Under the pieces are notes generated by a model, which saw only the letters and a program-made list of their open reading frames with translations, was not told where the DNA came from and made no database searches. Source: a virus. Taken from it: a stretch of DNA of 45,762 nt. The DNA lies in the IMG/VR virus record IMGVR_UViG_3300033052_000013, positions 1 to 45,762 of that record; one strand, 5' to 3'. Positions 8,877 through 44,513 of the stretch are shown in pieces (within the stretch, counting starts at the first letter, position 1; each line of letters starts with the position of its first letter). The translations under genes and the position numbers were made by a program.

Positions 8877-9590
8877 TCAGGCCTCCACCAGCTTGCCAGC
8901 TTCGGCGCGGTACCAGGTATCTGGCTTGATGCCGTCCTGACCGACAATGCCGCAGGCGGCAGAAAGCGTCGGGTAACCGCGACCGTCCCACTCGCCGCGC
9001 TCTACGGCAAACAGAGCCACGCCATCGGCGCCCATGACCCGACCGTCTTTGCCAGGAGCCATCGCCGCGCCCTGATCGCCGGATGCGGTGGCCGCGCCCT
9101 GAGTGCCGGATGCGGTGGCCGCGCCCCGATAGCCGGATGCGGTGGCCGCGCCCTGATAGCCGGATGCGGTGGCCGCGCCCTGATCGCCGGATGCGGCGGC
9201 CAGACCGTTAGGTTTCGTCGCTACCGGACCCTCAAGGGTCGCACGGTCCATAACCCACTTGACCGCCTCCAACGTCAGGTCGCGAAGGCCAATCTCTTCA
9301 CCGACCTTCAGGATTTCACCCGCGACCTTTATGTTGTCGTCGGTGTCCGTGGCGCCGGAGAGCGTCACCCGGCAGAAGCGTGAACCAGCCGGAGCGTAGT
9401 ATTCGAAGACCGACAGCGGGTGCGCGTCGCTGATGATGGCGTGGAATCCGCTTTCGCAAGCTTTGACCTTCCCGGTGTGCGTGTAGGTCTTGCCGACATC
9501 AAACTGAAACCCGCGACACGTCAGGTCGGCGTTGAAGCCCTTGATTGCGGACACGGGTGCGGCATCGGCCGCCTTGGGTTTGCGGGCCAT
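8877..9590 (-). CDS. Phage protein with five nonapeptide repeats (DUF7666-like)
   Basis: 237 residues. The N-terminal domain (16-125) has KGFNADLTCRGFQFDVGKTY, then CESGFHAI and HPLSVFEYYAPAGSRF, matching a widespread phage domain I know as DUF7666-like. Residues 133-177 are five tandem nonapeptides of the form ASG(D/Y/T)(Q/R)GAA(T/M), which may build a small coil or fibre. A 60-residue C-terminal domain follows (GRVMGADGVALFAVERGEW). The role is unknown. It is the second gene of the leftward operon, 4-bp-class coupling with its neighbours. Confidence 0.75.
   Translation of the reverse strand: MARKPKAADAAPVSAIKGFNADLTCRGFQFDVGKTYTHTGKVKACESGFHAIISDAHPLSVFEYYAPAGSRFCRVTLSGATDTDDNIKVAGEILKVGEEIGLRDLTLEAVKWVMDRATLEGPVATKPNGLAAASGDQGAATASGYQGAATASGYRGAATASGTQGAATASGDQGAAMAPGKDGRVMGADGVALFAVERGEWDGRGYPTLSAACGIVGQDGIKPDTWYRAEAGKLVEA
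9060..9194. repeat. Five tandem 27-bp coding repeats
   Basis: A 135-bp block inside the repeat-protein gene consists of five 27-bp units differing at a few positions. Each encodes one ASGxxGAAx nonapeptide. Units are contiguous with no spacers. Such an array can gain or lose units by slippage, and the phage's own annealing system could act on it. Confidence 0.85.
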
Positions 9591-10063
9591 TAGGCGGCTT
9601 CCTTGTTGGTGAGATTGTCGTTGGCGGTCGATGCGCGCGGAGCCGTCGTGAACACGCCGACCAGCTTGTCCGTCCAGAACTTGCCGGCCCAGCTTTCCGA
9701 GACGGCCCGGCCCAACTGGCAGGAGATCATCTTCGGTTCGGGGCCGGTGATGTCCGACAGGACGCCGGCATGGAAACCGTCGCGGCCCATGTTGAAGACC
9801 AGCACGTCGCCGGGCTTGGCCTGGTCCAGGGTGATCGGCGCCATGCCGCGACCCAGGAAGGCGTTCAGAGCGATGGAGCGCTCACGCGGACCCCAGCCGG
9901 GGGCGAAGGTCAAAGCCTTGCCGCCGAAGCAGCGGGCGATCAGCGTCCAGCCGTTGAAAGAGGTCTCAGCGTCTTGGGTGCTGGCGTAGGTCGTGCCGAT
10001 CAGCGAGCGGGCGGTTTCCAGCACGGCGGATCGGGTGGTGGTGGTGGCGGTCTTGAGCGACAT
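9590..10063 (-). CDS. NlpC/P60-like protein lacking the catalytic cysteine; first gene of leftward operon
   Basis: 157 residues from ATG at 10063 (GGGAG ahead); longer frames would cross the operator region. The layout follows NlpC/P60 papain-like peptidases: a helix and AETSFNGWTLIARCF where the family has the D-C-x-G nucleophile, AKPGDVLVFNMGRDGFHAGV with the conserved strand and His98, then ESWAGKFWTDKLVGVF at the end. The nucleophile position is Gly38, so peptidase activity is doubtful unless Cys45 substitutes. Being first in an early operon, it may be a binding protein rather than a tail or lysis enzyme. Confidence 0.6.
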   Translation of the reverse strand: MSLKTATTTTRSAVLETARSLIGTTYASTQDAETSFNGWTLIARCFGGKALTFAPGWGPRERSIALNAFLGRGMAPITLDQAKPGDVLVFNMGRDGFHAGVLSDITGPEPKMISCQLGRAVSESWAGKFWTDKLVGVFTTAPRASTANDNLTNKEAA

Positions 10064-10087: not shown

Positions 10088-10129
10088 ACTGTGCATTCCT
10101 GCACGTTTCCTGTCAATGCATAAATGCAC
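10088..10129. promoter_or_regulatory. Leftward early promoter with two repressor operators
   Basis: GTGCA-TTCC-TGCAC (10091..10104) is identical to the operator at 11775..11788. A second, ATGCA-TAAA-TGCAC, is at 10116..10129. On the minus strand a consensus -35, TTGACA, is at 10116..10111, and the first operator fills the spacer toward a weak -10 (CACAGT, 10093..10088). Bound repressor would block the operon starting at 10063. This mirrors the arrangement ahead of cro. Confidence 0.7.
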
Positions 10130-10133
10130 ACTT

Positions 10134-10162
10134 TTGACAGAGACCGGTTCAGCTAGTGTAGT
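10134..10162 (+). promoter_or_regulatory. Promoter for the lipoprotein pair
   Basis: TTGACA (10134..10139), a 17-bp spacer and TGTAGT (10157..10162; four of six matches) give a good sigma-70 promoter pointing at 10183. The operator at 10116..10129 lies immediately upstream, so CI may either leave it active or touch it as an activator. A GGGAGGG Shine-Dalgarno follows. Confidence 0.6.
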
Positions 10163-10182
10163 TGAGGCAAGGGAGGGTTGTG

Positions 10183-10569
10183 ATGAGACTGCTGGGTATA
10201 ACCGTCGCTGGGGCGCTGGCGCTGTCCGGCTGCGCAGGAACGGGACGACTGATGTCCTATGGAACGGACATGGCGGACGCTCTGGTCCGGATGGGACCGG
10301 CGGCGTTCTCGGTCTATGTGCATCCGGCCGACGACACGCTGATGCTTCAGCGTCGCATGTCGCAGACCTCAAACTCGGATGGCCCCGCTCTGATTACCAT
10401 CGCGGCGCAGACCTTCCTTGATCCCGTAGGCTGCACAGCGGGCAGCGCCACGCCGCTCGCCCCAGGCACTTGGGAAGTCCCATTCACCTGCCCGGCGGCC
10501 GTAGATATCCGCGCCTTAGCCCAGCAACAGCGGGCGGCCTTGCGGGCCGGCACGCCAATCCATCCATGA
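10183..10569 (+). CDS. Phage-encoded lipoprotein 1
   Basis: 128 residues from ATG at 10183, preceded by GGGAGGG. MRLLGITVAGALALSGCAG is a lipoprotein signal with lipobox LSGC, so the mature protein is anchored by its Cys to a membrane leaflet facing the periplasm. The remainder is a small domain with two further cysteines (VGCTAG, FTCPAA) that could pair. It is transcribed from its own promoter opposite to the early operon and lies between the leftward promoter and cI, the usual place for genes expressed in lysogens. Superinfection exclusion or envelope change is a plausible but unproven role. Confidence 0.75.
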   Translation: MRLLGITVAGALALSGCAGTGRLMSYGTDMADALVRMGPAAFSVYVHPADDTLMLQRRMSQTSNSDGPALITIAAQTFLDPVGCTAGSATPLAPGTWEVPFTCPAAVDIRALAQQQRAALRAGTPIHP

Positions 10570-11030
10570 GAACCAACATGAAAAAGCTGATCCTGTCCGC
10601 TATCCTCGCCGCCAGCTTGTCGGCATGCGTGACGGCGCCCGCCATCATCCCTATCGAGAACAGCCGGGCAGTCCCGCTGTCCAAGGATGCCGTCTGGTCG
10701 AACCTCGTAGAGTATTTCGCGTCTGGGAACATCGCCATCAAGACGATCGAGAAGGACAGCGGGATCATCTACGCCGAGCGGATGTTTGCCAGGGGCACGG
10801 AGCTGTCGTCGTTTGCCGATTGTGGCGCGGCGGCTATGGCGTCGCCGGTCGGCGGGGCCGCCGATCTGAATGTCTTCGTGCGCGAAACTGCCGCAGGCGT
10901 CAACGTGACCGTGAATGCCCGATACCGCCAGAGCCGAGCGAGCATGTGGGATGGGTCTGTTTCGTCTACCGAATGCGCCAGCCTCGGCACCCTTGAGCGC
11001 ACCATCCTGAACGCGGCAGCTGGGCGCTGA
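10566..11030 (+). CDS. Phage-encoded lipoprotein 2
   Basis: 154 residues from ATG at 10566, which overlaps the stop of lipoprotein 1 (ATGA) and has no Shine-Dalgarno of its own; ATG at 10578 is an alternative. The signal KKLILSAILAASLSACVT has lipobox LSAC. The mature part resembles a known class of small lipoproteins with VPLSKDAVWSNLVEYFA and an SGIIYAERMF strand, family name not certain. Two later cysteines may form a disulphide. It is coupled to lipoprotein 1 and ends 2 bp before the convergent cI stop. Confidence 0.75.
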   Translation: MRTNMKKLILSAILAASLSACVTAPAIIPIENSRAVPLSKDAVWSNLVEYFASGNIAIKTIEKDSGIIYAERMFARGTELSSFADCGAAAMASPVGGAADLNVFVRETAAGVNVTVNARYRQSRASMWDGSVSSTECASLGTLERTILNAAAGR

Positions 11031-11032
11031 TC

Positions 11033-11716
11033 CTAGATGAAGCGCTGGACCGCCTGAAGCAGCAGGCCGGTGATCTGCACCTCGATGTCCCCGCTGCGGC
11101 CATCATCCAAGACGAGAGGATCGGTCCAGCGGGGATTTGTTGATCTCGGCCAAAGCTTCATTCCGTCGGGACCGACTTCAACCTCTTTCAGCGTGATCTC
11201 CCTTAGCGCACCTCCGTCGCGCAACCGGGTTACCTCGACAATCATGCCTGTGTTGAGGTTCACCCCAGCGTCAGTGATGTCCACGATATGGGCCAAGTGA
11301 CCAGGCATTATCCCCCGCGCATTCATGCTGTCGCCCCTCACCTCGCGCAGCCATTGCCTGGCGTGGGGATAGCGCCTGTCCGCGATGACAGAGAAGAACA
11401 CCGGCTCGTCCTGAACCGTTTCGTCGATCTCCGCCCATTTCCCTGCCTGGATCGGTCCGATCATCGGCAGATCATCGACTGACGCCGGACCCGCCGGCGC
11501 CACCGCCAGCCCTTGAGGCAGATCGAGCCCCGCCGCCTCCGCGATCTTTCGGAGGGTCGCGGGTTTCGGCGTGAACTTGAACTCTGGGTCATTCAGAGGG
11601 CGTGTGATCGTGGTTGGTGCGATGCCCGCTTTCTTCGCCAGGGCGAACGGCTTGAGGCCCGAAACCTCAAGGGCTCGGGTCAGAAAAGCGCGTGCGTCTT
11701 CGGTCGTGTCAGTCAT
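11033..11716 (-). CDS. cI: CI-type repressor, LexA/S24 family
   Basis: 227 residues from ATG at 11716. Residues 8-65 form a helix-turn-helix DNA-binding domain (PFALAKKAGIAPTTITRPLN). Residues 85-227 are the S24 self-cleaving domain: Ala91-Gly92 (IQAGKW) as cleavage bond, Ser130 in RGDSMN, and Lys177 in EITLKEV. RecA-stimulated cleavage would trigger induction on DNA damage. No Shine-Dalgarno is seen; a CACAAT -10-like box ends 6 bp before the ATG, so the message may be leaderless. It faces cro across 84 bp of operators. Confidence 0.9.
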   Translation of the reverse strand: MTDTTEDARAFLTRALEVSGLKPFALAKKAGIAPTTITRPLNDPEFKFTPKPATLRKIAEAAGLDLPQGLAVAPAGPASVDDLPMIGPIQAGKWAEIDETVQDEPVFFSVIADRRYPHARQWLREVRGDSMNARGIMPGHLAHIVDITDAGVNLNTGMIVEVTRLRDGGALREITLKEVEVGPDGMKLWPRSTNPRWTDPLVLDDGRSGDIEVQITGLLLQAVQRFI

Positions 11717-11722
11717 GCCGCG

Positions 11723-11793
11723 ATTGTGCACAAGCGCACGGTCAGTGGACTGTGCATTTCGGCATTGACTTACCGTGCATTCCTGCACATTCT
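11723..11793. promoter_or_regulatory. Divergent cI/cro operator-promoter region
   Basis: Operators: GTGCA-CAAG-CGCAC (11726..11739), a weak half-conserved site at 11752..11765, and GTGCA-TTCC-TGCAC (11775..11788). Rightward promoter: TTGACT (11765..11770), 17-bp spacer containing the last operator, CATTCT (11788..11793); a start 7 bp on would be at about 11800, the first base of cro. Leftward cI promoter: a CACAAT -10-like box at 11728..11723 without a clear -35. Confidence 0.65.
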
Positions 11794-11800
11794 GCGTCGC

Positions 11801-12034
11801 ATGCAAAACGTCGCCCCCGAAGTCATCGAAGTCGAGCAGCGCGCGAAGGATGCCGGGCTCACCATGGCGTCCATCCTCGCCGAGGTCGGCGTTGCGCAAT
11901 CCACGTGGTGGAGGTGGCGAAAGGGTGGCGTTGAGCCGCGCCTCGGAACCCTGCGGGACGTGGCTCATGCTCTCGACCGCCGGATCGCCTTGACCGCCGC
12001 CAACGACGACACCCGCTCCAGCGAGGCGGCGTGA
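11801..12034 (+). CDS. cro: Cro-like HTH repressor
   Basis: 77 residues from ATG at 11801. A helix-turn-helix spans about 20-50 (MASILAEVGVAQSTWWRWRK, with LGTLRDVAHAL as the closing helix). It is the first gene of the rightward operon, divergent from cI, exactly where Cro is encoded in lambdoid phages. There is no Shine-Dalgarno and the predicted transcription start coincides with the ATG. Its stop overlaps the next ATG (TGATG). Confidence 0.8.
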   Translation: MQNVAPEVIEVEQRAKDAGLTMASILAEVGVAQSTWWRWRKGGVEPRLGTLRDVAHALDRRIALTAANDDTRSSEAA

Positions 12035-17179: not shown

Positions 17180-17523
17180 AACCCCTCCGCAGAGACTTCT
17201 CCGAAACCGTCATCGCCAAGATCGACAAGACCAAAAAGACCGAAGCCCAAAAGGCCAGGGAAGCCAAGATCACGGCAGACGCCAGAACAGCCGCACAGAA
17301 GGCCATCGCACAGGCCGGGGCCGATGATGTGGTCCTGCACTGTGAAGGCGTCCTGATGGCCGTCAGAGACGCCCTGTGCGCCAATCTGGACCCGGAAGGG
17401 GCGGCTTCCACATTTGGGCGCTTCGCCAAGGTCTCGATCTACACCGGGCCTATTCGCAGGGCAGCGGCTGAACAGGCGTTCGCAAAGCTGACCCAGGCGG
17501 ACAATGATCGGGGGGCGGAATGA
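17176..17523 (+). CDS. Small early phage protein, unknown
   Basis: 115 residues. The first 45 are highly charged and helical (Lys/Ala/Thr-rich), followed by a domain with DDVVLHCEGVLMAVRDALC and GRFAKVSIYTGPIRRAAAEQ. I do not recognise it. It lies between the GcrA-like gene and the methyltransferase with 4-bp overlaps at both ends, which suggests joint expression. Confidence 0.6.
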   Translation: MKPLRRDFSETVIAKIDKTKKTEAQKAREAKITADARTAAQKAIAQAGADDVVLHCEGVLMAVRDALCANLDPEGAASTFGRFAKVSIYTGPIRRAAAEQAFAKLTQADNDRGAE

Positions 17524-18194
17524 CCGCTTCTGCCCGTGGTTTGTTCCGAGCAACCGGCAAGGCCTCCAAGCCTGTTCCGGTGCGTCTCCTCGACGGATCC
17601 TACGAGAAGGCGGATTCGCTTGAGCGGGAGAAGGACGACTTCTATCCGACCCCGCCCGAGCCGATCCGCGCCTTGCTACATGCCGAAATAGAACGGCTGC
17701 GCGACTTCCCGGCGATCTGGGATGCATCGGCCGGCGACGGCGCGCTGGTCCGCGAAATGGAAGCGATGGGCCTGACGGTAATTGCGTCTGACTTGGTTGA
17801 CCGGGGCATGGGCGCGGAGATCCGCGACTTCTACGATTTCACCTCGGCACCCGCTCGCGCGTCGGTACAGAATCCGCCGTTCCAAGAGTGTGGCTGGGGC
17901 AACGGAAAAGCCCGCTGGCTGACCCACGCGCTGGACACGCTCGATCTCGAATACATGGCCCTGCTGCTGAACTGGTCATGGCCGGGCGCGGGGGGTCTTG
18001 CGCCGTTTTGGGCCAAGCACCCGCCCGCGCGCGTGTACCTGATGCGCTGGAAGATCGACTTCACCGGCCAAGGCGCGCCGCCGATGTTGAACGCATGGTT
18101 TGTCTGGGACCGGAAGCACAAGGGCGAAACCGTGCTGCGGATGCTGGATCGAAAGGACGCGCGCCAGGGCCAGCTCTTCGGAGAGATCGGATGA
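17520..18194 (+). CDS. DNA methyltransferase (NPPF motif, probably N6-adenine)
   Basis: 224 residues. DFYPTPPEPIRALL (about 40-53) is the usual opening of phage type-II-like methyltransferases, WDASAGDGALV (67-77) is the SAM loop, ASDLVDRG the acidic strand end, and SVQNPPFQEC (NPPF at 118-121) the amino-methyltransferase catalytic motif. It transfers methyl from SAM to adenine (or N4 of cytosine) in DNA. The target is unknown. It differs from host CcrM in lacking a long C-terminal domain. It sits next to the GcrA homologue, whose family reads DNA methylation. Confidence 0.78.
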   Translation: MTASARGLFRATGKASKPVPVRLLDGSYEKADSLEREKDDFYPTPPEPIRALLHAEIERLRDFPAIWDASAGDGALVREMEAMGLTVIASDLVDRGMGAEIRDFYDFTSAPARASVQNPPFQECGWGNGKARWLTHALDTLDLEYMALLLNWSWPGAGGLAPFWAKHPPARVYLMRWKIDFTGQGAPPMLNAWFVWDRKHKGETVLRMLDRKDARQGQLFGEIG

Positions 18195-19836: not shown

Positions 19837-20807
19837 AGAAGGGCGAGAACTTCTATCGGCGCGATCCGAACAAGGCGCTTGCGGGCATGGCCAGCCTGAC
19901 CCTTGAAGAGCGAGGGGTCTACAACACCGTCCTTGACATGCTCTACCAGACCTGGCGCCCGCTTGAGGACGACCGGCGCTTCATCGCGAACTGGTGCAAC
20001 TGCGCCGTTCAGAAACTCAATCCGATCATCGGTCGCCTGATCGAAAAAGGACGCCTCATCACCTTCGAAGAAGGGGGGCGAACCTACATATCTGACGAGG
20101 CCTTCGAGGCCGAAAGGGCGAAGGTCAAAGGGGCCTCTCCGAGCCGGTCTGGAAGGGGTCAGAAACGGGAGAAGTCGGGGGAAGTCGAGGAGAAGTCGGA
20201 AGGTGTCAGACAGAACCACCCACTTCTCGATGCAGATAGCCAAGAAAAACAGTCGGTTACGGCTCTAGAGAAGAATAGAGAAGAAAAGAATTCCGTTCCT
20301 AACGGAACGGGCGAAACGCCGAGTTCGAATGAGCCTTCGGATGACCTTGCGGAGCTTCGTGGTCTGGAGCCCAGGGCCGCAGCCTGGGCGCTTTCGAGGA
20401 AGGTTCTCTGCGAGCGCGGAGGACTTACGCGAGCCAAGGCCGGGGAGATCGTCGGGAAGCTGTTCCGAGACCACGGACTCAGCCCCGGCGAACTTTGGGA
20501 AGCGGCCGAGGCGACGTGGAGGGCTGGGACCGAAAACCCGATCCCGTACCTGACCCGGCTCTGCGCTTCGGCGGCGAGCAAGCGCGGCGGAGCCGACAAC
20601 CTGGAACCCAGCGAGCGGCAACAGATCGCCTGGATGGAGGACTGGATCGAGTCGCCGTCCAACTGGCGCGGGACGCGGGGGCCAAGGCCCGGCGAGCCCG
20701 GATGCCGCGTCAGGCCCGAAATCCAGTTCAGGTTCGGGGTTCAGCCCAAAGCTGTGAATGACGACCAGACCAACGACCCAGACCTGTTTGCGAAAGGAGC
20801 GGCGTGA
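19833..20807 (+). CDS. DUF1376-like replication protein (initiator/helicase loader)
   Basis: 324 residues from ATG at 19833 (ATGA overlap with the helicase stop). Residues 1-90 match DUF1376: FYRRDPNKALAGMASLTLEE, RGVYNTVLDMLYQ and a winged-helix layout. Residues about 95-175 are a low-complexity, charged linker encoded by the iteron-like, locally A-rich DNA. The last 150 residues form a helical domain. DUF1376 proteins (YdaU type) sit in phage replication modules. By analogy with lambda O, the DNA inside the gene may be the origin. Confidence 0.78.
   Translation: MKKGENFYRRDPNKALAGMASLTLEERGVYNTVLDMLYQTWRPLEDDRRFIANWCNCAVQKLNPIIGRLIEKGRLITFEEGGRTYISDEAFEAERAKVKGASPSRSGRGQKREKSGEVEEKSEGVRQNHPLLDADSQEKQSVTALEKNREEKNSVPNGTGETPSSNEPSDDLAELRGLEPRAAAWALSRKVLCERGGLTRAKAGEIVGKLFRDHGLSPGELWEAAEATWRAGTENPIPYLTRLCASAASKRGGADNLEPSERQQIAWMEDWIESPSNWRGTRGPRPGEPGCRVRPEIQFRFGVQPKAVNDDQTNDPDLFAKGAA
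20171..20307. other. Candidate phage replication origin inside the DUF1376-like gene
   Basis: GAAGTCG occurs at 20171..20177, 20181..20187 and 20192..20198, steps of 10 and 11 bp. An A-rich stretch (about 20240..20290) follows, unusual in this GC-rich genome. Then comes an inverted repeat, TTCCGTT-CCT-AACGGAA (20291..20307). Iterons plus an AT-rich patch within the initiator gene is the lambda ori design. It encodes only the flexible linker of the protein. Confidence 0.5.
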
Positions 20808-22267
20808 TGATCAGATATGGATCTGTTTGCAGCGGCATTGAGGCCGCGTCTGTCGCGTGGCGCCCGCTGGGTTGGCGCGCCTCCTTCCTGTCCGAAATCG
20901 AGGCGTTCCCCCGCGCCGTCCTTCAGCACCATTATCCGGAGACCCCGCTTCATGGCGACTTCACCACGATCAAGGCCGGCGACTACGAACCAATCGACCT
21001 TCTGGTCGGAGGAACACCTTGCCAGTCTTTCAGCATCGCCGGTCTCAGAGGCGGACTGGACGACGACCGTGGCAACCTGGCCCTCGAATATCTTAGGCTT
21101 GCTGACCGACTGCGGCCCCGATGGCTGGTTTGGGAGAACGTCCCCGGCGTCCTGTCGTCGAACGGCGGACGGGACTTTGGAGCCATTCTCGGGGGCATGG
21201 TCGAACTCGGGTATGGCGTCGCCTACCGAGTGCTTGACGCTCAGTTCTTCGGAGTGGCCCAGCGACGCCGTCGTGTGTTCGTTGTCGGATACCTTGGAGA
21301 CTGGCGACGTGCCGCAGCGGTTCTATTTGAGCGCCACAGCCTGTCGGGGCATCCTGCGCCGCGCCGAAAAGCGGGGCCGAGCGTTGCCGCCCTCACTGCA
21401 AACGGCGTTGGAACATGTGGCGCTGACGACAACCAGGGACAAGCCGGACACCTGATCCCGCAGGCATTCGGCGGCGGAAATCGCTCCGGTCCACTCGACG
21501 TCACCGCGACGCTCACCGCGAAGGGTCAGCGTCAATATTTCGAAGTCGAGACCTTTATCGCCCAGACCCTCAAGAGCGAAGGGTTCGACGCGAGCGAGGA
21601 CGGGACGGGGCGCGGGACGCCTATCGTGCCGGTGGCCTACCGCACCACGGGCAACGACGGGTGCTATGAGACCGGCGACGCAGTCGGTGCGCTGACGCAG
21701 TCGACCGACCCGAACGCTCAGATCATCGCCTTCAGCGCCAAGGACCACGGCGCAGACGCGATGAACGACATGTCGCCGACCCTGCGAGCAGGCGGCCACA
21801 GCAAGAGCCATGCAAACGCTGGCGTGATGCCGGCCGTCGCCTTCGCCCTTCGCGGTCGTGAAGGCGGCGCCATGCCTGAGGTCGGGGGCGACCGGATCGG
21901 CGCGCTATGCGCTGCATCGGGCGGATCGAGCCGGGATTATGTGGCGATGTCCGCGCCCGAGCTTGCCGATACTCTGTCGGTCGGAGCGAACCAGACGACG
22001 GGCTTTCCCGGCGATTTTTGCGCGCGCGGATCCGCCGTCCGCCGCCTGACGCCCCGCGAGTGCGAGCGGCTTCAGGGCTTTCCCGACGACTACACCCTCA
22101 TTCCCTACCGCAAGGGGATGGCCGCCGACGGCCCTCGCTACAAGGCGCTGGGAAACTCGATGGCTGTTCCGGCCATGGCTCACATAGGCCGCCGAATCCG
22201 AGCCGTCGAAGCCATCTTCAACCCAACCCCCGCCAACGACACCCAACCCAAGGAGAGTGCGGCATGA
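20807..22267 (+). CDS. C5-cytosine DNA methyltransferase (Dcm type)
   Basis: 486 residues from ATG at 20807, with AAGGAG ahead and TGATG overlap. Motifs in order: I (SVCSGIEAA), IV with the nucleophile Cys72 in GGTPCQSF, VI (ENVPGV, 110-115), VIII (QRRRR, 152-156), IX (RRLTPRECERLQGFP) and X (GNSMAVPAM). Between VIII and IX is a long recognition region of about 250 residues with recurring TLxA/ALxA segments. It makes 5-methylcytosine, probably to protect phage DNA. No partner restriction enzyme is present, so it is an orphan enzyme. Confidence 0.93.
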   Translation: MIRYGSVCSGIEAASVAWRPLGWRASFLSEIEAFPRAVLQHHYPETPLHGDFTTIKAGDYEPIDLLVGGTPCQSFSIAGLRGGLDDDRGNLALEYLRLADRLRPRWLVWENVPGVLSSNGGRDFGAILGGMVELGYGVAYRVLDAQFFGVAQRRRRVFVVGYLGDWRRAAAVLFERHSLSGHPAPRRKAGPSVAALTANGVGTCGADDNQGQAGHLIPQAFGGGNRSGPLDVTATLTAKGQRQYFEVETFIAQTLKSEGFDASEDGTGRGTPIVPVAYRTTGNDGCYETGDAVGALTQSTDPNAQIIAFSAKDHGADAMNDMSPTLRAGGHSKSHANAGVMPAVAFALRGREGGAMPEVGGDRIGALCAASGGSSRDYVAMSAPELADTLSVGANQTTGFPGDFCARGSAVRRLTPRECERLQGFPDDYTLIPYRKGMAADGPRYKALGNSMAVPAMAHIGRRIRAVEAIFNPTPANDTQPKESAA

Positions 22268-43899: not shown

Positions 43900-43914
43900 G
43901 CCGACAGGCTGACA

Positions 43915-43931
43915 TGCGAACGCCGTTCGCA
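43915..43931. promoter_or_regulatory. 17-bp palindrome upstream of endolysin
   Basis: TGCGAACG-C-CGTTCGCA, arms of 8 bp around one base, 27 bp before the endolysin ATG. A related GTTCGCGAAC is at 43791..43800. It is too tight to be a terminator stem and looks like a dimer-binding operator. Binding protein unknown. Confidence 0.45.
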
Positions 43932-43958
43932 TCAATCCCAACAATCTGGAGACTGACC

Positions 43959-44513
43959 ATGAGCGACGTATTCGCGCGCCTCATCGAGGGCGTATTGGGC
44001 CGTGAAGGCGGCTACGTAAACCATCCTGACGACCGGGGCGGGGAAACCATTTGGGGGATCACCGTCGGTACAGCGCGCCGCTTTGGCTACGCCGGGGCCA
44101 TGCGGACGATGACGCGAGCCCAGGCCATCGAAATCTATCGGGCGCAATACTGGACCGCCCCCGGCTTCGATCGCATCGCCACCCTTTCCGAACGCATCGC
44201 GGAAGAGATGTTCGACACCGGGATCAACATGGGGCCTGCGGTCGCCTCGACCATGCTTCAACGGTGCCTGAACGCCCTGAACCGCCAGGGCAAGGACTAT
44301 GCCGACCTGAAGGTAGATGGCGATGTCGGCCCTGCCACCATCCGCGCCCTTGGGGCTTTCCTGCGGATTCGCGGCAAGGAAGGCGAGGCCGTGATCCTGA
44401 AGGGCCTGAACGGGCTCCAGGCCGAACGCTACATCTCGCTCGCCGAAGGCCGGGCCGCAAACGAGAGCTTCGTTTACGGTTGGCTTCGAACGCGAGTGGA
44501 GATGGCCGCGTGA
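43959..44513 (+). CDS. Endolysin, glycoside hydrolase family 108 (N-acetylmuramidase)
   Basis: 184 residues from ATG at 43959 (GGAG ahead). GREGGYVNHPDDRGGETIWG is the GH108 signature with catalytic Glu16, and DTGINMGPAVASTMLQRCLN with later VDGDVGPATIRAL form the C-terminal peptidoglycan-binding part (PG_binding_3). It cuts the glycan backbone at the end of infection. No signal peptide, so it depends on the holin. Its stop overlaps the next GTG by 4 bp. Confidence 0.93.
   Translation: MSDVFARLIEGVLGREGGYVNHPDDRGGETIWGITVGTARRFGYAGAMRTMTRAQAIEIYRAQYWTAPGFDRIATLSERIAEEMFDTGINMGPAVASTMLQRCLNALNRQGKDYADLKVDGDVGPATIRALGAFLRIRGKEGEAVILKGLNGLQAERYISLAEGRAANESFVYGWLRTRVEMAA

What the first reader, a model, noticed from the sequence alone, without database searches (positions are those of the whole stretch)
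10183..11030. Coupled lipoprotein pair in the immunity region: lysogenic conversion or superinfection exclusion
Two lipobox-bearing proteins, the second translated from an overlapping ATG without its own ribosome site, have their own consensus promoter in the part of the genome expressed by lysogens. This is where exclusion lipoproteins are often carried, but these sequences are not ones I recognise as such.
Basis: inference. Interest (0 to 1): 0.55.

Follow-up and report, generated by a model that had tools for sequence, protein, structure and literature searches.

The report
Prophage lipoprotein pair in cargo slot
A phage of a Brevundimonas-like bacterium carries, beside its repressor gene, two small genes for proteins that would be anchored in the host's outer envelope; relatives carry other, mostly envelope-anchored, genes at exactly the same spot, so this looks like an interchangeable slot for genes with which a resident virus alters its host, perhaps to keep rival viruses out, which has not been shown.

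Summary
The pair is real. Of 271 ORFs of at least 60 aa, only these two pass a strict lipoprotein-signal test (shuffles: mean 0.08 hits). Both are conserved in four other loci and, among the three closest, under purifying selection (dN/dS 0.09-0.23). They lie between two clusters of a lambda-like operator, OL (2 sites) and OR (3 sites), convergent with an S24-type repressor gene. In five relatives with other cargo, homology ends at OL2 (10129-10140) and resumes at the repressor's 3' end (11033-11058). The interval is thus an exchangeable cargo slot; a lipobox protein fills it in 8 of 9 distinct phages (4 of 9 carry this pair). OL2 sits about 43 bp upstream of the likely start of the lipoprotein transcript, a pRM-like layout that predicts expression in the lysogen, possibly repressor-assisted; not shown. 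ORF2 resembles the BamC N-domain in fold; ORF1 has no convincing match. Exclusion is unproven: the only exclusion-family match is signal peptide, and cargo does not follow tail-fibre type. Verdict: new lysogenic-conversion lipoproteins in a rexAB/bstA-like moron site.

The parts
10183..10569 (+). ORF1: 128-aa lipoprotein (lipobox LSGC at 10222-10233; conserved C84 and C103)
10578..11030 (+). ORF2: 150-aa lipoprotein (lipobox LSAC at 10617-10628; conserved C86 and C137 in the 154-aa numbering); alternative start 10566 overlaps the ORF1 stop
10091..10104 (.). OL1 operator, GTGCATTCCTGCAC (identical to OR1)
10116..10129 (.). OL2 operator, ATGCATAAATGCAC; left edge of the cargo slot
10088..10116 (-). 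Predicted pL: -35 TTGACA (10116-10111), OL1 in the spacer, -10-like CACAGT (10093-10088); would drive the leftward early genes
   Evidence: read; TTGACA in all 9 OL regions, five of its six bases being fixed by the search pattern
10134..10159 (+). Predicted promoter of the lipoprotein pair: TTGACAG, 11 bp, GCTAGTGT; OL2 centre about -43 from the predicted start
   Evidence: RpoD consensus from PMC8144410 (passages); inference
10171..10177 (+). Ribosome-binding site of ORF1, GGGAGGG
   Evidence: kept in L003 and L002
11033..11716 (-). CI-like repressor (HTH + S24 peptidase-like), convergent with ORF2 (stops 2 bp apart); right edge of the slot
11726..11739 (.). OR3 operator, GTGCACAAGCGCAC
11752..11765 (.). 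OR2 operator, GTGCATTTCGGCAT
11775..11788 (.). OR1 operator, GTGCATTCCTGCAC
11765..11793 (+). Predicted pR: -35 TTGACT, 17 bp (with OR1), CATTCT; mirrors pL
   Evidence: read
11801..12034 (+). Cro-like regulator, 77 aa
   Evidence: phrog_4, E 6.7e-6
9590..10063 (-). First gene of the leftward operon: NlpC/P60-like protein, 157 aa (weak match)
   Evidence: E 0.019, below the Pfam cut-off; phrog_329, E 3.8e-5

Best explanation
The pair is a lysogenic-conversion ('moron') cassette in an exchangeable slot between the left operator and the repressor gene of a lambda-like phage of Brevundimonas-type hosts. In the lysogen the repressor sits on OL1 and OL2 and shuts pL, because OL1 lies inside pL and OL2 abuts its -35 box. 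Facing away from pL, OL2 is placed just upstream of the lipoprotein promoter, about where CI at OR2 stands relative to lambda pRM, so the lipoproteins would be made when lytic genes are off. ORF1 and ORF2 are exported, lipid-modified and, having no Asp after the Cys, probably sent to the outer membrane, where they would act together: ORF1 was found only beside ORF2. The likeliest role is to alter the host surface to the prophage's benefit, with exclusion of other phages at adsorption or DNA entry the leading single guess (about 0.4). SHOWN here from sequence: lipoprotein signals, conservation, operator clusters, slot boundaries, swapped cargo. INFERRED: promoter use, lysogenic expression, repressor help, outer-membrane site, joint action, exclusion.
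For: Only these 2 of 271 ORFs pass the lipoprotein test. Purifying selection. Five operator copies form two clusters and out-score every other site in 45.8 kb by about 4 bits or more (16.3-22.1 against 12.4). OR, which was not part of the search pattern, recurs beside the repressor in 9 of 9 distinct phages found by OL. Homology to relatives with other cargo ends at OL2 (10129-10140) and resumes at the repressor's 3' end (11033-11058) in L009, L012, L014, L016 and L017. 8 of 9 distinct phages hold a lipobox protein in the slot (5 of 6 cargo types; lipoboxes judged by eye, that of L009 weak); the ninth has HIRAN, and L012 adds a TerB-like gene. A -10-like TANNNT 23-24 bases past OL2 in 5 of 9 phages and 3 of 6 cargo types: 0 of 5000 shuffles reach both counts, about 1% reach three cargo types. 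ORF2 relatives sit alone beside a different CI-type repressor, again convergent, in L022, L023, L027-L029. ORF2 is sporadic in hosts (4 of 131 genomes of the genus, one of them a weak match without lipobox; 4 of 398 of the order), as expected of phage cargo.
Against: No expression data. The -35 element is not conserved; L009 has no TANNNT in the 70 bases scanned, L014 has it 4-5 bases nearer and L007 and L016 9-12 bases further away. The choice of -10 (TAGTGT or TGTAGT) shifts OL2 between about -43 and -46. A repressor dimer on OL2 might block rather than help the promoter. The window's nearest tail fibre belongs to L014's phage (G007), which carries a different slot lipoprotein, while pair carriers G002 and G001 match only residues 1-655 and 7-616 of 1142; this does not favour receptor-specific exclusion. 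The pair also occurs outside the slot, beside a terminase gene (L008).
Confidence: 0.6

Rival explanations
1. Host-fitness conversion without phage exclusion: the lipoproteins alter envelope assembly, stress resistance or surface properties of the lysogen, like lambda Bor.
For: ORF2 model resembles the outer-membrane lipoprotein BamC N-domain and Flpp3. Cargo does not follow tail-fibre type. Slot cargo is varied, including TerB-like and HIRAN proteins.
Against: No family assignment supports a host process; ORF2 is rare in host genomes (4 of 131); the fold is a common helix-grip shared with unrelated proteins.
Confidence: 0.35
2. Superinfection-exclusion lipoproteins in the strict sense (Cor/Llp/Ltp-like): they block the receptor or DNA entry of the same or related phages.
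For: Position between repressor and early left genes, a known home of accessory genes (PMC7067206 passage); phage lipoproteins with tested exclusion exist (PMC11893012 section 29); two-gene defence modules beside repressors exist (PMC6426606 passages).
Against: PHROG Cor match is signal peptide only; no PADLOC match; pair and tail fibre do not co-vary; the tested exclusion lipoproteins of PMC11893012 lie in the structural gene cluster (passage).
Confidence: 0.4
3. The pair is repressed, not expressed, in lysogens because the repressor on OL2 occludes the promoter; it acts early in infection.
For: Only 4 bases lie between OL2 and the -35-like TTGACA.
Against: OL2 lies upstream of the core promoter, unlike at pL and pR, where operators lie inside it.
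Confidence: 0.2
4. Lysis proteins (a spanin-like lipoprotein pair).
For: Two small adjacent genes; weak Rz-like match of ORF2 (phrog_456, E 0.16, residues 2-31).
Against: Both are lipoproteins, with no transmembrane partner; they lie in the immunity region, 33 kb from the lysozyme gene at 43914-44513.
Confidence: 0.02

Closest known systems
lambda rexAB and BTP1 bstA moron site
   Same: Accessory genes between the repressor and the leftward early operon; a known mosaic hot spot (PMC7067206 passage).
   Different: rexAB and bstA are transcribed with cI (passages); here the genes face cI and use their own predicted promoter next to OL2. Protein families differ.
Lpp exclusion lipoproteins of mEpimmI coliphages (and Cor, Llp, Ltp)
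   Same: Small phage lipoproteins with a lipobox.
   Different: For Cor, no sequence match beyond the signal peptide; the others were not compared directly. mEpimmI lipoproteins lie in the structural gene cluster (passage). Exclusion was tested there, not here.
BamC (Pfam Lipoprotein_18) N-terminal domain
   Same: Helix-grip fold in the model: Foldseek E 4.8e-3, probability 1.0; Z 9.6, rmsd 3.3, 102 aligned to 2laf.
   Different: No Pfam match for ORF2; only sub-threshold for the distant relative L025 (E 0.099). BamC has two such domains and a long unstructured N-terminus (recalled).
Gordonia phage CarolAnn genes 43/44
   Same: Two-gene accessory module expressed in the lysogen beside the repressor (PMC6426606 passages).
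   Different: Proposed there as a membrane protein and its activator, co-transcribed with the repressor.

Membership tests
Moron / lysogenic-conversion locus | Insertion between conserved phage landmarks, absent or replaced in relatives | tested here: met
   homology stops at OL2 and resumes at the cI 3' end in 5 of 5 relatives with other cargo
Moron / lysogenic-conversion locus | Own promoter | tested here: inconclusive
   -10-like element conserved in 5 of 9, -35 in 2 of 9
Moron / lysogenic-conversion locus | Expressed in the lysogen | not testable with these tools
   needs RNA-seq
Superinfection-exclusion lipoprotein (Cor/Llp/Ltp type) | Lipoprotein signal peptide | tested here: met
Superinfection-exclusion lipoprotein (Cor/Llp/Ltp type) | Sequence membership of a known exclusion family | tested here: not met
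   the Cor PHROG match covers residues 1-20 (ORF1) and 5-25 (ORF2) only; no other exclusion family matched
Superinfection-exclusion lipoprotein (Cor/Llp/Ltp type) | Blocks infection when expressed | not testable with these tools
   needs an infection assay
lambda-like immunity region (OL-cargo-cI-OR-cro) | Same operator in two clusters flanking the repressor, inside divergent early promoters | tested here: met
   (sites by sequence; binding not tested)
BamC / Lipoprotein_18 | Pfam PF06804 match | tested here: not met
   0 families for ORF2 at E up to 1
BamC / Lipoprotein_18 | Helix-grip fold | tested here: inconclusive
   predicted model similar, but the fold is widespread
Rz/Rz1 spanin pair | Inner-membrane plus lipoprotein partner beside the lysis genes | tested here: not met

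The most novel reading that the evidence does not exclude
OL of this phage group carries a second, outward-facing pRM-like promoter that the repressor itself activates from OL2, so that any gene dropped into the OL-cI slot becomes lysogen-specific. The slot is a plug-in site selected for envelope lipoproteins, and ORF1/ORF2 are a new two-part outer-membrane system that closes the host surface to other phages.
Probability: 0.2. Interest if true: 0.6.

Novelty: new member of a known kind. Interest (0 to 1): 0.4.

Why it matters
The paper searches made here surfaced no description of this immunity region in temperate phages of Caulobacterales. A precise slot edged by OL2 and the cI stop lets one harvest lysogenic-conversion genes from this phage group by a DNA pattern alone: one search found nine contigs with one OL pattern. 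The mainly lipoprotein cargo predicts that these prophages mostly act on the envelope, which can be tested directly. The OL2 position offers a simple test of repressor-driven cargo expression.

Tried and rejected
Spanin reading: rejected, because there is no transmembrane partner and the lysozyme gene is at 43.9 kb.

Known families: Pfam, PHROGs, NCBIfam and PADLOC gave no membership for ORF1 or ORF2. Annotated phages (INPHARED): no match to ORF1, ORF2, two distant ORF2 relatives or the DNA region. Plasmids: one weak 31% match of ORF2, not followed.

Solved structures by sequence: no match for either alignment. ORF1 model (mean pLDDT 75.6): the best Foldseek matches are scattered ribosomal, kinase and secretion-chaperone chains at E 0.045 or worse, taken as no information.

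Tail-fibre co-variation as a test of exclusion: no support. In one search, 5 of 10 records matched the fibre; G004, G005, G008, G009 and G010 did not, and G004, G005, G008 and G010 are short records that may simply lack it. G003's contig ends inside the fibre gene, so its receptor end could not be compared.

Rows dropped before the slot count of 9 phages: L015 (same cargo and flank as L014), and L001, L004, L005, L006, L010, L011 and L013 (further copies of the window, L003, L002 or L007 loci). L008 has the pair but no OL match and is not among the 9. L024 (E 2.8e-6, no lipobox) was left out of the ORF2 alignment A5. L029 was left out of the folding alignment A6 because it nearly repeats L028.

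One paper (PMC12042878, passages) was opened for BamC and proved irrelevant.

Full report
WHAT WAS CHECKED. The window is a 45.8-kb virus record. It has a tRNA-Lys and an integrase at the left end, leftward recombination genes (RecT, exonuclease), a lambda-like immunity region, rightward replication genes, terminase, head, tail, fibre and lysozyme genes. A relative carrying the same pair sits in Brevundimonas viscosa (L006), so a Brevundimonas-type host is likely; this is inference.

THE PAIR. ORF1 (10183-10569) and ORF2 (10578 or 10566 to 11030) encode 128 and 150-154 residues with clear lipoboxes, LSGC and LSAC. A strict pattern (positive N-terminus, hydrophobic stretch without charges, lipobox) passes 2 of 271 ORFs in the window, these two, and 0.08 on average in 50 shuffled windows. 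Neither Cys is followed by Asp, so under the usual sorting rule (recalled, from enterobacteria) both go to the outer membrane. Each has two conserved Cys in the mature domain, which could form a disulphide (inference). An ATGA overlap at the ORF1 stop is present in the window, L007 and L008 but not in L002 and L003, where ORF2 starts 7-8 bases past the stop; translational coupling is likely, the exact start open.

CONSERVATION. ORF1 and ORF2 occur together in L002, L003, L007/L006 and L008; ORF1 was found nowhere without ORF2. In the genus of B. viscosa ORF1 is in 1 of 131 genomes and ORF2 in 4 of 131, one of them a weak match; ORF2 is in 4 of 398 genomes drawn from the order. Among the window, L002 and L003, dN/dS is 0.14-0.23 for ORF1 and 0.09-0.14 for ORF2; comparisons with L007 and L008 run higher (up to 0.50) and are less reliable, with synonymous sites near saturation.

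OPERATORS. The pattern GTGCA-N4-TGCAC and a weight matrix built from the nine phages pick out five sites: OL1 10091, OL2 10116, OR3 11726, OR2 11752 and OR1 11775. The next-best site in the window scores 12.4 bits, against 16.3-22.1 for these. With two mismatches allowed, the simple pattern is not by itself more frequent than chance (10 found, 20 expected); it is the clustering and the score that single the sites out. pL and pR have the same design, with a TTGAC(A/T) -35 box overlapping OL2 or OR2 by one base and OL1 or OR1 in the spacer.

THE SLOT. A 39-base OL pattern finds nine viral contigs. One repeats the cargo of another (L015 and L014), so with the window there are nine distinct phages; all nine also have OR beside a repressor gene, which the pattern did not ask for. 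Between OL2 and cI these carry: the pair (window, L002, L003, L007; L007 adds a small reverse gene), other lipoproteins (L009, L014, L017), a TerB-like gene plus a reverse-strand lipoprotein (L012), and a HIRAN protein without a lipobox (L016). So 8 of 9 phages and 5 of 6 cargo types include a lipobox protein (judged by eye; that of L009 is weak). In the five with other cargo, DNA similarity ends at window 10129, 10134 or 10140 and resumes at 11033-11058. The slot is therefore bounded by OL2 and the cI 3' end.

PROMOTER. In the window TTGACAG-N11-GCTAGTGT resembles the Caulobacter RpoD consensus TTGaCgS / GCtANAWC (PMC8144410, passages), with mismatches at the last three positions of the -10 box; alternatively TTGACA-N17-TGTAGT. 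Across the nine phages TANNNT lies 23-24 bases past OL2 in window, L002, L003, L012 and L017, at 19 in L014, at 33-35 in L007 and L016, and is absent in the scanned stretch of L009. That puts OL2 at about -43 in five phages, near the -42 of CI at OR2 of lambda pRM (recalled). The joint count exceeds shuffles (0 of 5000), but at the level of independent cargo types the support is modest (about 1%), and the site was chosen after looking.

OTHER SETTINGS. ORF2 relatives without ORF1 lie beside a different, 267-268 aa repressor, again convergent (L022, L023, L027, L028, L029). In L027 the motif CAAACAGTT lies both upstream of the lipoprotein and upstream of that repressor; it was not found upstream of the repressor in L028, L022 or L023, so a shared operator there is only a lead. 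Another relative lies among tail genes (L025), and the pair in L008 lies beside a terminase gene. The family has thus reached at least three kinds of site, with a repressor-adjacent position in two phage groups.

FOLD. ORF2 model: mean pLDDT 82.1, mostly 83-94 over the mature domain. The six best Foldseek matches are all BamC chains, E 4.8e-3 to 1.3e-2, none below 1e-3. On the second look Flpp3 scores Z 10.6 (rmsd 2.9, 88 aligned) and the BamC N-domain Z 9.6 (rmsd 3.3, 102 aligned), but kinase KA1 domains and Bet v 1-like proteins score 8-10 too. I read this as a helix-grip domain of the kind seen in some outer-membrane lipoproteins, without a claim of descent or function. ORF1: no usable match.

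FUNCTION. Position and operator layout argue for lysogenic conversion. Exclusion is the leading single guess because several genes beside repressors in other phages do this (PMC7067206 and PMC6426606, passages; PMC9936078, abstract) and because phage lipoproteins have been shown to exclude phages (PMC11893012, section 29). Against it, the window's tail fibre is closest to that of G007 (92% over residues 4-771 and 66% over 879-1094), which has a different slot lipoprotein, while pair carriers G001 and G002 share only N-terminal fibre similarity.

LIMITS. No expression, lipidation or infection data; nine phages only; open-access papers only (searches, listings seen). No paper surfaced in those searches that describes this pair or this slot; that is not proof of absence.

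Noticed in passing
window 9077-9200 (minus-strand gene 8877-9590): Several near-identical copies of a unit of roughly 27-30 bases (CGGATGCGGTGGCCGCGCCCTGAT...) inside the DUF7666-type early gene; the protein also has weak matches to collagen-like and tail-fibre PHROGs.
   Followed up: no
window 11030-11033: ORF2 and cI end tail to tail with 2 bp between them and no terminator-like site reported there, so either transcript could run antisense into the other.
   Followed up: no
window 9590-10063 (minus): First gene of the leftward early operon is a weak NlpC/P60 match, an odd enzyme for an early operon; it keeps its place in L002 and L003.
   Followed up: no
L003 5070-5495 (minus): A 141-aa ORF with an HNH-like pattern (recognised by eye) lies between the NlpC/P60-like gene and OL, so the left side of OL also takes insertions.
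   Followed up: no
L012 and L016, OL-cI interval: Other slot cargo: a TerB-like 258-aa protein and a HIRAN-domain 160-aa protein, candidates for defence or stress functions.
   Followed up: partly
window 17520-18194 and 20804-22267: Two DNA methyltransferase genes in the replication region.
   Followed up: no
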